Of a stretch of 64,000 bases of DNA, positions 1-64,000 are shown piece after piece. The notes beneath the pieces were generated by a model. The model saw nothing but the letters and a program-made list of their open reading frames with translations. It did no database searches and was not told the DNA's origin. A program made the position numbers and the translations under genes. The DNA is from Brachyhypopomus gauderio (lineage: Eukaryota > Chordata > Actinopteri > Gymnotiformes > Hypopomidae). The stretch spans positions 62,001 through 126,000 of the forward strand of contig NW_027507037.1 of the NCBI RefSeq assembly GCF_052324685.1. The letters are read 5' to 3'. Positions within the stretch are counted from its first letter, which is position 1, and each line of letters begins with the position of its first letter.

Positions 1-1
1 T

Positions 2-77
2 GGTAGCGTGTCTGAGTGGTCTAAGGCACTGGATTTAGGCTCCAGTCTCTGAGAAGGCATGGGATCGAATGCTGCCA
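2..77 (+). pseudogene. Degenerate tRNA-Leu(UAG) relic, family of 93 copies (first copy)
   Basis: This 76-nt relic is clearly homologous to the tRNA-Leu gene in the same unit and keeps anticodon TAG (36-38). The acceptor stem can still form seven pairs (2-8 with 70-76, including two G-U). The T arm has lost six bases (the cccacc of the intact gene). The B box reads ggatcgaatgc (62-72) instead of ggttcgaatcc, the A box reads tgtctgagtgg (9-19), and the D stem loses its outer pair. It should not recruit TFIIIC well or make a normal tRNA. The first T5 lies about 105 bp downstream (183-187). Copies of 76 nt start at 2, 693, 1384, 2075, 2766, 3457, 4148, 4839, 5530, 6221, 6911, 7602, 8293, 8982, 9673, 10364, 11055, 11746, 12437, 13128, 13818, 14509, 15200, 15889, 16580, 17270, 17961, 18652, 19341, 20032, 20722, 21413, 22025, 22715, 23406, 24097, 24787, 25478, 26169, 26860, 27550, 28241, 28932, 29623, 30313, 31004, 31695, 32385, 33076, 33766, 34457, 35147, 35838, 36528, 37219, 37909, 38600, 39291, 39982, 40673, 41364, 42055, 42745, 43436, 44127, 44817, 45508, 46199, 46890, 47581, 48272, 48963, 49654, 50345, 51035, 51726, 52417, 53108, 53799, 54490, 55181, 55871, 56562, 57253, 57944, 58635, 59325, 60016, 60707, 61398, 62089, 62780 and 63471. 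Confidence 0.93.
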
Positions 78-333
78 GCTGGTAACTTTACAATGATTCT
101 TGCCTTTGTGTTCTCTTGAAAACCCTCTCTTCCAGTACAGATGACGGGAAACAATTTGAAAAAGACATTGGAACCCTTCTTCTTTTTCAGAGTTACATAT
201 AACTTAGCATTTTTTACTTTGAAAGTTAGGCAAGCATTGTTCCTCACAAGTTCAGCCCTGCTCATGTACCAAGTTGAGAATGCTGCTTTGGAGGACTCCA
301 GACTTGAAAATTGCAAAAAAGATATTACCAAAG
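78..333. other. Spacer 1 (relic to tRNA), representative
   Basis: This 256-bp spacer separates the relic from the tRNA gene and recurs in every unit. It holds T5 at 183-187 and T6 at 210-215, either of which could stop Pol III coming from the relic. The last 20 bp are A-rich and form the tRNA leader, which varies between units as classes K, T or E. A second common variant is ataacttag versus atagcttag near 198-206. No promoter element outside the tRNA body is convincing. Open frames on both strands persist only because the copies are nearly identical. Confidence 0.8.
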
Positions 334-340
334 GGTAGCG

Positions 341-351
341 TGGCCGAGCGG
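341..351 (+). promoter_or_regulatory. Pol III A box of tRNA-Leu (representative)
   Basis: tggccgagcgg matches the eukaryotic A-box pattern TRGYNNARNGG inside the tRNA gene, at gene positions 8-18. The same element sits at gene start +7 in every full copy. Unit 88 alters the bases just downstream (gcggcctaaagc). The relic carries tgtctgagtgg at the equivalent place. Confidence 0.9.
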
Positions 352-393
352 TCTAAGGCGCTGGATTAAGGCTCCAGTCTCTGCGGAGGCGTG

Positions 394-404
394 GGTTCGA
401 ATCC
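394..404 (+). promoter_or_regulatory. Pol III B box of tRNA-Leu (representative)
   Basis: ggttcgaatcc is a perfect match to the TFIIIC-binding B box GGTTCGANTCC, at gene positions 61-71. It is unchanged in all full-length tRNA copies I checked, is lost in truncated unit 32, and is mutated in the relic family. Confidence 0.93.
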
Positions 405-415
405 CACCGCTGCCA

Positions 416-691
416 AGCATTGTTTTTAGGAGATGGCAGAAGAATTCTTATACCTAATCACTCTCAACAACGGTGCCTGACCCAAGGCTGAAGAGCAGTT
501 ATTCGCATGATGGTAGCAGAGAGCCATGCTACGATGCCATTTGCAAATGCTCATACCTGGCTTTGTTCTTAGGCGACATTGAAGACCCTGCGGTGTTTTG
601 ATAACAGGCAGGAAATGATGCATCTTTCCTCTTCTGACAGAAGACAAATTCAGCTTCTTCTACAAGAATGTCAGCAAATACAGTCTTCCTG
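416..691. other. Spacer 2 (tRNA to next relic), representative
   Basis: This 276-bp spacer contains the terminator and then about 260 bp with no recognisable gene. It carries most of the haplotype markers that separate TAG-linked from AAG-linked units: caatgg/caacgg, agtcatt/agttatt, gccacg/gctacg, ctgcggtg/ctgcagtg, aaaaattcacc/acaaattcagc, and aaatgcag/aaatacag. A 10-bp palindrome atttgcaaat (539-548) and a gatgcatc palindrome (617-624) recur throughout. A 6-bp stem, gtagca 513-518 with tgctac 527-532, is broken by gccacg in TAG-type units, so it is not a conserved structure. Confidence 0.75.
423..427 (+). terminator. Pol III T-run terminator (representative, trailer class A)
   Basis: Five T residues begin 8 nt after the discriminator base, the usual Pol III stop. 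The trailer differs by unit class: A, B and C have T5, D has T7 starting 6 nt after the gene, E4 has only T4, and unit 79 has T8 (54218-54225). T4 is the usual minimum for vertebrate Pol III, so class E4 units may read through more often. Confidence 0.88.
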
Positions 692-1024
692 TGGTAGCGT
701 GTCTGAGTGGTCTAAGGCACTGGATTTAGGCTCCAGTCTCTGAGAAGGCATGGGATCGAATGCTGCCAGCTGGTAACTTTACAATGATTCTTGCCTTTGT
801 GTTCTCTTGAAAACCCTCTCTTCCAGTACAGATGACGGGAAACAATTTGAAAAAGACATTGGAACCCTTCTTCTTTTTCAGAGTTACATATAGCTTAGCA
901 TTTTTTACTTTGAAAGTTAGGCAAGCATTGTTCCTCACAAGTTCAGCCCTGCTCATGTACCAAGTTGAGAATGCTGCTTTGGAGGACTCCAGACTTGAAA
1001 ATTGCAAAAAAGATATTACCACAG

Positions 1025-1106
1025 GGTAGCGTGGCCGAGCGGTCTAAGGCGCTGGATTAAGGCTCCAGTCTCTGCGGAGGCGTGGGTTCGAATCCCACCG
1101 CTGCCA
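1025..1106 (+). tRNA. tRNA-Leu (AAG), unit 2
   Basis: Anticodon 1059-1061; consensus body; leader T, trailer B. Confidence 0.97.
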
Positions 1107-61811: not shown

Positions 61812-62088
61812 AGCAGTGTTTTTAAGAGATGGCAGAAGAATTCTTATACCTAATCACTCTCAACAATGGTGCCTGACCCAAGGCTGAAGAGCAGTCATTC
61901 GCATGATGGTAGCAGAGAGCCATGCCACGATGCCATTTGCAAATGCTCATACCTGGCTTTGTTCTTAGGCGACATTGAAGACCCTGCGGTGTTTTGATAA
62001 CAGGCAGGAAATGATGCATCTTTCCTCTTCTGACAGAAGAAAAATTCACCTTCTTCCACAAGAATGTCAGCAAATGCAGTCTTCCTGT

Positions 62089-62164
62089 GGTAGCGTGTCT
62101 GAGTGGTCTAAGGCACTGGATTTAGGCTCCAGTCTCTGAGAAGGCATGGGATCGACTGCTGCCA
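62089..62164 (+). pseudogene. tRNA-Leu relic with private change, unit 91
   Basis: Reads gatcgactgctgcc instead of gatcgaatgctgcc, further altering the B-box remnant. Confidence 0.9.
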
Positions 62165-62420
62165 GCTGGTAACTTTACAATGATTCTTGCCTTTGTGTTC
62201 TCTTGAAAACCCTCTCTTCCAGTACAGATGACGGGAAACAATTTGAAAAAGACATTGGAACCCTTCTTCTTTTTCAGAGTTACATATAGCTTAGCATTTT
62301 TTACTTTGAAAGTTAGGCAAGCATTGTTCCTCACAAGTTCAGCCCTGCTCATGTACCAAGTTGAGAATGCTGCTTTGGAGGACTCCAGACTTGAAAATTG
62401 CAAAAAAGATATTACCAAAG

Positions 62421-62502
62421 GGTAGCGTGGCCGAGCGGTCTAAGGCGCTGGATTTAGGCTCCAGTCTCTGCGGAGGCGTGGGTTCGAATCCCACCGCTGC
62501 CA
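62421..62502 (+). tRNA. tRNA-Leu (TAG), unit 91
   Basis: Anticodon 62455-62457; leader K, trailer C. Spacer 2 shifts from TAG-type to AAG-type at ctgcagtg. Confidence 0.97.
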
Positions 62503-63111
62503 AGCAGTGTTTTTAAGAGATGGCAGAAGAATTCTTATACCTAATCACTCTCAACAATGGTGCCTGACCCAAGGCTGAAGAGCAGTCATTCGCATGATGG
62601 TAGCAGAGAGCCATGCCACGATGCCATTTGCAAATGCTCATACCTGGCTTTGTTCTTAGGCGACATTGAAGACCCTGCAGTGTTTTGATAACAGGCAGGA
62701 AATGATGCATCTTTCCTCTTCTGACAGAAGACAAATTCAGCTTCTTCTACAAGAATGTCAGCAAATACAGTCTTCCTGTGGTAGCGTGTCTGAGTGGTCT
62801 AAGGCACTGGATTTAGGCTCCAGTCTCTGAGAAGGCATGGGATCGAATGCTGCCAGCTGGTAACTTTACAATGATTCTTGCCTTTGTGTTCTCTTGAAAA
62901 CCCTCTCTTCCAGTACAGATGACGGGAAACAATTTGAAAAAGACATTGGAACCCTTCTTCTTTTTCAGAGTTACATATAACTTAGCATTTTTTACTTTGA
63001 AAGTTAGGCAAGCATTGTTCCTCACAAGTTCAGCCCTGCTCATGTACCAAGTTGAGAATGCTGCTTTGGAGGACTCCAGACTTGAAAATTGCAAAAAAGA
63101 TATTACCAAAG

Positions 63112-63193
63112 GGTAGCGTGGCCGAGCGGTCTAAGGCGCTAGATTTAAGCTCCAGTCTCTGCGGAGGTGTGGGTTCGAATCCCACCGCTGCCT
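63112..63193 (+). tRNA. tRNA-Leu-like copy with anticodon TAA, probably non-functional, unit 92
   Basis: The loop reads tttaagc, so the anticodon is TAA (63146-63148), nominally reading UUA and UUG. It is one base from TAG. The stem reads ctaga/tccag, giving an A-C mismatch at 63141. The discriminator is T (63193) instead of A, and gaggtg is also present. Leucyl-tRNA synthetase depends on A73 in the eukaryotic enzymes studied, so charging should be poor. Four changes in one copy suggest a decaying gene rather than a new isoacceptor. Leader K; trailer C preceded by tagc. Confidence 0.55.
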
Positions 63194-63470
63194 AGCAGTG
63201 TTTTTAAGAGATGGCAGAAGAATTCTTATACCTAATCACTCTCAACAATGGTGCCTGACCCAAGGCTGAAGAGCAGTCATTCGCATGATGGTAGCAGAGA
63301 GCCATGCCACGATGCCATTTGCAAATGCTCATACCTGGCTTTGTTCTTAGGCGACATTGTAGACCCTGCGGTGTTTTGATAACAGGCAGGAAATGATGCA
63401 TCTTTCCTCTTCTGACAGAAGAAAAATTCACCTTCTTCCACAAGAATGTCAGCAAATGCAGTCTTCCTGT

Positions 63471-63546
63471 GGTAGCGTGTCTGAGTGGTCTAAGGAACTG
63501 GATTTAGGCTCCAGTCTCTGAGAAGGCATGGGATCGAATGCTGCCA
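63471..63546 (+). pseudogene. tRNA-Leu relic with private change, unit 93
   Basis: Reads aaggaactgg instead of aaggcactgg. It belongs to the most divergent unit of the window. Confidence 0.9.
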
Positions 63547-63802
63547 GCTGGTAACTTTACAATGATTCTTGCCTTTGTGTTCTCTTGAAAACACTCTCTT
63601 CCAGTACAGATGACGGGAAACAATTTGAAAAAGACATTGGAACCCTTCTTCTTTTTCAGAGTTACATATAGCTTAGCATTTTTTACTTTGAAAGTTAGGC
63701 AAGCATTGTTCCTCACAAGTTCAGCCCTGCTCATGTACCAAGTTGAGAATGCTGCTTTGGAGGACTCCAGACTTGAAAATTGCAAAAAAGATATTATCAA
63801 AG

Positions 63803-63884
63803 GGTAGCGTGGCCGAGCGGTCTAAGGCGCTGGATTTAGGCTTCAGTCTCTGCGGAGGCGTGGGTTCGAATCCCACCGCTGCCA
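63803..63884 (+). tRNA. tRNA-Leu (TAG), unit 93
   Basis: Anticodon 63837-63839. A C-to-T change gives a G-U pair in the anticodon stem (ctgga/ttcag). The leader reads gatattatcaaag and the trailer ctgtgtttttagg, neither seen elsewhere in the window. The unit is cut by the window end. Confidence 0.93.
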
Positions 63885-64000
63885 AGCTGTGTTTTTAGGA
63901 GATGGCAGAAGAATTCTTATACCTAATCACTCTCAACAACGGTGCCTGACCCAAGGCTGAAGAGCAGTCATTCGCATGATGGTAGCAGAGAGCCATGCCA

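What the first reader, a model, noticed from the sequence alone, without database searches (positions are those of the whole stretch)
1..64000. Very large single-family tRNA-Leu array: at least 93 units with no other content
Every 691 bp a well-formed tRNA-Leu gene recurs in the same orientation, and the array exceeds the window at both ends. Known large tDNA clusters differ: the Xenopus 3.18-kb tDNA repeat mixes several isotypes, and the human chromosome 1 clusters use longer mixed units. A short unit devoted to one amino acid at satellite-like copy number is unusual. It may be a tissue- or oocyte-specific supply of CUN-reading tRNA, a silent satellite, or a chromatin or nuclear-organisation element; the sequence alone cannot decide.
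Basis: partly seen in the sequence, partly recalled or inferred. Interest (0 to 1): 0.85.

Follow-up and report, generated by a model that had tools for sequence, protein, structure and literature searches.

The report
Tandem array of leucine tRNA genes
A stretch of animal-type chromosome is made only of about 93 near-identical repeats, each carrying one leucine tRNA gene beside one dead leucine tRNA copy, and the pattern of mutations hints that the intact genes are switched on in the germ line.

Summary
In detail: the 64-kb window is 93 head-to-tail units of about 691 bp (the last cut by the window end) and nothing else. Gene A, a tRNA-Leu, is full length in 92 units (anticodon AAG 65, TAG 26, TAA 1) and truncated in one. 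(1) Every unit also holds a decayed tRNA-Leu(TAG) relic, B (93 copies, promoter boxes broken in all). (2) AAG and TAG genes mark two unit families with different 3' spacers, plus recombinants; blocks of 8 and 4 units are exactly duplicated. (3) Variant sites pile up on gene A and its flanks (22/128 bp against 30/563; scan p 0.00035) but not around B (8/123 against 44/568, p 0.85). There the A and B boxes are constant (92/92) and a T4-T8 terminator follows every full-length gene. This fits germ-line Pol III transcription with transcription-associated mutagenesis, so I favour an active, perhaps maternal, tRNA supply over a silent satellite; expression is untested. Single-isotype tRNA arrays and maternal tRNA repeats are already reported: a new member of a known kind. 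Species, array length and function remain unknown.

The parts
1..64000 (+). whole array: 93 head-to-tail units of about 691 bp, running off both ends of the window
692..1382 (+). representative unit (u02, AAG family), consensus columns 1-691
693..768 (+). element B in u02: decayed tRNA-Leu(TAG) relic (columns 2-77)
   Evidence: not seen by Rfam at E<=1 in five copies
1025..1106 (+). gene A in u02: intact tRNA-Leu(AAG) (columns 334-415)
1032..1042 (+). Pol III A box of gene A in u02 (columns 341-351)
   Evidence: same 11 bases in 92 of 92 full-length genes
1085..1095 (+). Pol III B box of gene A in u02 (columns 394-404)
   Evidence: same 11 bases in 92 of 92 full-length genes
1114..1118 (+). 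T5 terminator of gene A in u02
   Evidence: T4-T8 run after 92 of 92 full-length genes
1005..1132 (+). zone of excess variant sites in u02 coordinates (columns 314-441)
5862..5943 (+). representative tRNA-Leu(TAG) gene (u09)
5957..6208 (+). 3' spacer haplotype linked to TAG genes (columns 429-680), in u09
21412..22023 (+). u32, 612-bp unit with truncated gene A (stub 21745-21810) and a 14-bp tandem duplication at 21818-21847
2765..8291 (+). u05-u12, first copy of an exactly duplicated 8-unit block
9672..15198 (+). u15-u22, second copy of the 8-unit block
14508..17268 (+). u22-u25, exactly duplicated 4-unit block, first copy
17960..20720 (+). u27-u30, second copy of the 4-unit block
59324..64000 (+). 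u87-u93, units with most of the singleton variants (14 of 24); array edge probably near

Best explanation
A genuine, recently homogenised tandem array of Pol III tRNA-Leu genes. The unit carried two tRNA-Leu copies before it was amplified (B is decayed in the same way in all 93 units). B had died and lost much of its CpG by transitions; A kept its promoter. Units multiplied and were homogenised by unequal exchange in blocks (exact duplications of 8 and 4 units and recombinant haplotypes are shown; the process is inferred). Gene A is transcribed by Pol III from its internal A and B boxes and ends at the T-run (signals shown, transcription inferred). Transcription happens in the germ line (inferred from a variant excess at A and not at B). 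The product is a bulk supply of leucine tRNA of both AAG kind (A34 read as inosine, recalled) and UAG kind, perhaps for the oocyte or early embryo (inferred by analogy with zebrafish).
For: Variant sites: 22/128 bp around A against 30/563 elsewhere, Fisher p 4e-5; scan over places p 0.00035. It holds with TAG-family sites removed (20/128 against 22/563), with columns 415-441 dropped (14/101 against 30/563, p 0.0037), without CpG transitions (20/128 against 25/563), with singletons only (11/128 against 13/563, p 0.0016) and for u01-u86 only (14/128 against 24/563, p 0.008). Internal control: the equivalent zone around B shows none (8/123 against 44/568, p 0.85). All 3 sites with two derived alleles (323, 359, 422) lie in the zone. 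A and B boxes constant in 92 of 92; 0 of the 22 zone sites in the 22 box bases, p 0.010. T4-T8 run 5 or 7 nt after the gene in 92 of 92; after B the first T4+ run is 105 nt away in 92 of 93. CpG o/e 0.95 in gene A against 0.22 in the spacers. Precedent: maternal zebrafish tRNAs from highly repetitive regions (PMC11417395 passages).
Against: No expression, methylation or chromatin data; species unknown. The array is young, so intact genes are weak evidence of selection. The gene alone is only weakly above the rest (11/82 against 41/609, p 0.043). The allele-frequency skew (1 of 12 gene A alleles at 10 or more copies, 6 of 13 in its flanks) is p 0.07, and B shows the same lack of common alleles (0 of 4). 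The CpG-transition contrast (2 of 8 gene A CpGs, 4 of 5 spacer CpGs) is p 0.10. With the A box drawn two bases longer one variant (column 352) falls in it and the test weakens to p 0.05-0.11. Variant sites share ancestry, and the zone's width was chosen after looking; the scan corrects for place, not width. 13 of 92 full-length genes are non-canonical. In zebrafish 60% of predicted tRNA genes lie on the heterochromatic chr4 and most predicted genes are inaccessible (PMC11574265 passages).
Confidence: 0.6

Rival explanations
1. Silent satellite. The unit merely happens to contain a tRNA gene; it spread by unequal exchange, is packed in methylated heterochromatin, and the genes look intact because the array is young.
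For: Homogeneous units (mean 8.1 differences per 691), block duplications and more diverged units at one end, spacers strongly CpG-depleted (o/e 0.22), damaged genes copied along with good ones (u10 and u20 share three changes), 13 of 92 genes non-canonical. Zebrafish chr4 tRNA repeats are described as heterochromatic in all tissues (PMC11574265 passages).
Against: Does not explain a variant excess centred on A and its flanks with none at B in the same unit, nor constant promoter boxes inside that zone, nor retained CpG in A.
Confidence: 0.27
2. Chromatin boundary or nuclear-organisation element: bound TFIIIC at each B box, with little or no tRNA output, insulates or clusters the locus; occupancy or fork stalling raises local mutation.
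For: 92 of 92 intact B boxes; variant excess at A would also follow from bound complexes or stalled forks. A tRNA tandem repeat at human 1q23.3 is proposed as a boundary (PMC4041453 abstract).
Against: The terminator, needed only for transcription, is also kept in 92 of 92. No CTCF-like core with a crude recalled pattern.
Confidence: 0.08
3. Assembly expansion: few real units, multiplied or wrongly ordered by the assembler.
For: An exact repeat of 6475 bp at a lag of 6907 and one of 3451 at 3452 could be assembler duplications; no reads were available.
Against: 43 distinct unit sequences among 93, with ordered families, recombinants and a unique deletion, which copying of a few units does not produce. 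Copy number as such is untested.
Confidence: 0.05

Closest known systems
Tandem ncRNA arrays of Hydractinia (PMC11067881; passages and section 14 read)
   Same: [quoted passage not shown] significance unclear.
   Different: No mix of anticodons, resident tRNA relic or mutation zone is mentioned in what I read; species of the window unknown.
Zebrafish repetitive tRNA clusters, many on chr4 (PMC11417395 and PMC11574265, passages)
   Same: Very large tRNA repeats in an animal; maternally deposited tRNAs come from the repetitive regions.
   Different: Zebrafish neighbouring pairs are mostly heterogeneous (K-N, K-S, R-T; PMC2888827 section 6); here one amino acid only.
Human 1q23.3 tRNA VNTR (PMC4041453, abstract and section list)
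   Same: Tandem repeat whose unit carries tRNA genes.
   Different: 7.3-kb GC-rich units, 9-43 per allele, binding CTCF; here 691 bp, about 45% GC, no CTCF-like core found.
Arabidopsis SYY cluster (PMC12308677, abstract and section 7)
   Same: Tandem expansion with a homogeneous core and variable regions with more pseudogenes beside it.
   Different: Ser/Tyr mix in a plant; silenced in most tissues, reactivated in root tips.
Entamoeba tRNA arrays (PMC2652664, abstract)
   Same: tRNA genes as tandem array units.
   Different: Units hold up to 5 tRNA genes; in E. histolytica with short tandem repeats between genes.
Xenopus laevis 3.18-kb tDNA repeat
   Same: Vertebrate tandem tDNA at high copy.
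   Different: Several isotypes per unit (recalled).

Membership tests
Tandem single-isotype tRNA gene array (Hydractinia-like) | many head-to-tail near-identical units with a tRNA gene of one amino acid | tested here: met
   92 full-length tRNA-Leu genes and 1 stub in 93 units, same strand
Tandem single-isotype tRNA gene array (Hydractinia-like) | near-identical spacers of several hundred nt | tested here: met
   mean 8.1 differences per 691 positions between units
Functional Pol III tRNA gene | A box, B box and T-run terminator | tested here: met
   92 of 92 full-length gene A copies; both boxes of B broken in 93 of 93 (box consensus recalled)
Germ-line transcribed tRNA gene (transcription-associated mutagenesis) | raised variation in immediate flanks over background | tested here: met
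   the concept was seen as a passage in PMC8113476 citing Thornlow 2018, which is not held. Raised variation does not by itself prove transcription.
Maternal or oocyte tRNA repeat (zebrafish-like) | encoded in a highly repetitive cluster | tested here: met
Maternal or oocyte tRNA repeat (zebrafish-like) | tRNA expressed in ovary or egg and deposited maternally | not testable with these tools
   no RNA data
Human 1q23.3-type CTCF tRNA VNTR | CTCF site in each unit | tested here: inconclusive
   no match of a crude recalled CTCF pattern on either strand of the consensus unit
Human 1q23.3-type CTCF tRNA VNTR | large GC-rich unit of about 7.3 kb | tested here: not met
   691-bp unit, GC about 0.45
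Silent heterochromatic tRNA cluster or satellite | methylated, inaccessible genes | not testable with these tools
   indirect only: CpG o/e 0.22 in spacers, 0.95 in gene A
tRNA-derived SINE | tRNA-like head followed by a body and an A-rich or simple-repeat tail, dispersed in the genome | tested here: inconclusive
   head-to-tail array, tRNA ends at a T-run; dispersed copies could not be searched, no own genome held

The most novel reading that the evidence does not exclude
A dedicated germ-line or maternal leucine tRNA locus in which two isoacceptors (IAG and UAG) are co-amplified as intermixed unit families, and in which Pol III occupancy itself drives both local hypermutation and the exchanges that expand the array. 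Each unit carries its own promoter-dead twin as a built-in control, so transcription-associated mutagenesis of tRNA genes can be measured inside one locus in about 93 matched pairs.
Probability: 0.3. Interest if true: 0.65.

Novelty: new member of a known kind. Interest (0 to 1): 0.45.

Why it matters
If the array is active, it is a clean natural experiment: an active tRNA gene and a dead twin about 333 bp away, repeated some 93 times, which separates the effect of Pol III transcription on mutation from that of region. It would also add a single-amino-acid case to the question whether animals keep separate, highly repeated tRNA loci for oocyte and embryo, as reported for zebrafish.

Tried and rejected
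Own-genome search: no genome is held for this window, so species, array ends, copy number and dispersed relatives could not be checked. Two exact spacer patterns, one in viral contigs and one in genome contigs, gave 0 matches, as expected for an animal-type sequence.

The unit as a dimer of one half-unit: not supported; the two spacers are no more alike than shuffled sequence (local score 18; 91 of 200 shuffles reach it). Gene conversion of gene A by B: little support; of the nine positions where aligned A and B differ, only the anticodon base appears as an allele among the full-length gene A copies; the u32 stub also has one B-like base at column 391, which was masked in the counts (comparison by eye). 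Protein content: 118 ORFs of 90 aa or more, all on the - strand; 3 examples gave no Pfam match at E<=1. Exact octamer and TATA patterns: none; two weak PSE-like strings on the - strand, not pursued; CTCF-like: none. RNA folding was uninformative: gene A (AAG and TAG examples), B and the u92 gene all have z between -1.56 and -1.88.

Ten literature searches listed no paper whose title or abstract start describes this array. Several lists were cut (20 of 170, 10 of 82, 15 of 211, 8 of 13, 20 of 72), the species is unknown and only open-licence papers are held, so this is weak evidence of absence.

Left out of the variant counts: columns 390-505 of u32 (misaligned by its deletion), columns 532-691 of u93 (beyond the window end) and column 190 (second base of a 2-bp deletion) (one search kept column 190).
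Full report
What is there. ARAGORN finds 92 tRNA-Leu genes, all on the + strand, at about 691-bp spacing. Rfam finds the same 92 and no other family at its gathering score. Cutting the window at a second conserved element gives 93 units, the last incomplete at the window end, with no other sequence between them. Unit length is 691 or 690 bp, with three of 689 and one of 612.

Anatomy of one unit (consensus columns). Columns 2-77 hold element B, a tRNA-Leu(TAG)-like sequence with a 6-bp deletion towards its 3' end and, besides the anticodon base, eight substitutions relative to gene A, four of them CpG transitions (chance of 4 or more of 8 about 0.001, or 0.013 if two thirds of changes are transitions). 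Its A-box and B-box regions depart from consensus in 93 of 93 copies, and Rfam does not list it even at E<=1 in the five copies tested. Columns 78-333 are spacer 1, 334-415 gene A, 423-427 a T-run, 442-691 spacer 2. Protein-coding content is not evident: the ORFs of 90 aa or more are all on the - strand, and three examples have no Pfam match.

Gene A copies. Of 92 full-length copies 65 have anticodon AAG, 26 TAG and one TAA; 57 and 22 have the exact canonical AAG and TAG sequence. Rfam scores run from 41.2 to 60.1 bits, the lowest six from 41.2 to 48.6. A T4-T8 run lies 5 or 7 nt after the gene in 92 of 92; after B the first T4+ run is 105 nt away in 92 of 93 and 8 nt away in one.

Unit families and dynamics. 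TAG genes are mostly linked to a 3' haplotype (columns 429-680): for instance 471T in 22 of 27 scorable TAG units and 1 of 65 AAG units. AAG units with parts of that block (such as u50, u52, u54, u73) and TAG units lacking most of it (u77, u82, u83, u87) show exchange. Units u05-u12 equal u15-u22 and u22-u25 equal u27-u30; three runs of three units also recur; the longest exact repeat is 6475 bp at a lag of 6907. There are 43 distinct unit sequences among 93. T at the first anticodon base is found in 13 of 32 units at the left, 2 of 44 in the middle and 13 of 17 at the right; 14 of 24 singleton variants lie in the last seven units. I read this as unequal exchange homogenising the interior, with the array edge near the right end of the window. 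The relic B has TAG, so TAG may be the older state (inference).

Active or silent. In a neutral satellite, variant sites should be spread evenly. Instead they gather at columns 314-441, gene A with 20 bp before and 26 bp after: 22 sites in 128 bp against 30 in 563 (Fisher p 4e-5). A scan over all places of a 128-bp window on the circular unit, against 20,000 random placements, gives p 0.00035, with the best window (23 sites) starting at column 315. The gene taken alone is only weakly above the rest (11/82 against 41/609, p 0.043). The excess survives removal of TAG-family sites, of columns 415-441 and of CpG transitions, the use of singletons only, and restriction to u01-u86 (p 0.008). The equivalent zone around B shows nothing (8/123 against 44/568, p 0.85). 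All three sites with two derived alleles fall in the zone. Inside the zone the 11-bp A box and 11-bp B box hold none of the 22 sites (p 0.010); drawing the A box two bases longer lets one in and weakens this to p 0.05-0.11. Raised mutation in immediate flanks of tRNA genes, put down to transcription, is stated in a passage of PMC8113476 that cites Thornlow 2018; that paper is not held. Germ-line transcription of A is the reading I prefer; bound TFIIIC or fork stalling at A without productive transcription could look the same.

Methylation trace. The spacers hold 5 CpG where 22.5 are expected (o/e 0.22), with TpG and CpA at 1.30 and 1.31; B is at 0.39 and gene A at 0.95. This suggests a genome with heavy CpG methylation, most likely a vertebrate (inference; no species was identified). 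CpG transitions occur as variants at 4 of 5 spacer CpGs, 2 of 8 gene A CpGs and 0 of 2 in B; the first contrast is not significant (p 0.10).

Against my reading. There is no expression or chromatin evidence. The array is young, so intactness says little. The allele-frequency contrast between gene A and its flanks is weak (p 0.07), and B too has no common alleles (0 of 4), so it may reflect linkage, not selection. Variant sites are not independent, because units share ancestry, and the zone width was set after looking. Thirteen of 92 full-length genes are non-canonical, and in zebrafish most predicted tRNA genes lie on the heterochromatic chr4 or are inaccessible (PMC11574265 passages).

Compared with what is known. 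[quoted passage not shown] Clusters of fifty and more tDNAs occur in Nematostella and teleosts (PMC2888827 section 6). Human 1q23.3 has a 7.3-kb tRNA VNTR that binds CTCF (PMC4041453 abstract). Entamoeba has multi-gene tRNA arrays (PMC2652664 abstract). The Arabidopsis SYY cluster has a homogeneous core, more variable flanking regions and tissue-specific reactivation (PMC12308677 abstract and section 7). [quoted passage not shown] So this is a new member of a known kind. Its distinctive points are the short unit for one amino acid, the two intermixed anticodon families and the dead twin in every unit.

Verdict. Most likely a germ-line-active leucine tRNA array (0.6), with a silent satellite as the main rival (0.27).

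Noticed in passing
21412-22023 (u32): Gene A is cut inside the B box and joined, after a few filler bases, to a 14-bp tandem duplication (21818-21847); the unit is 79 bp short. It looks like a template-switch or end-joining scar with its breakpoint in gene A.
   Followed up: partly
63112-63193 (u92): A TAG-type gene with a change at the third anticodon base reads TAA, but it also has an anticodon-stem change and a changed discriminator base, so it is probably dead.
   Followed up: partly
6553-6634 and 13460-13541 (u10, u20): The two lowest-scoring full-length genes (41.2 bits) share the same three changes and lie in the duplicated 8-unit block: damaged genes are copied along with good ones.
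   Followed up: partly
unit columns about 35-331, - strand, e.g. 726-1022: An open frame of about 98 aa on the - strand recurs along the array; no Pfam match for the three - strand frames tested. Probably chance in a homogenised repeat.
   Followed up: partly
unit columns 539-548, e.g. 1230-1239 in u02: A 10-bp palindrome resembling an octamer site lies about 145 bp before the next B element; no exact octamer was found.
   Followed up: no
unit columns 1-333 against 429-680: The AAG and TAG families show no fixed difference in the 5' half of the unit but differ at about nine linked sites in the 3' half, so the halves have different histories.
   Followed up: partly
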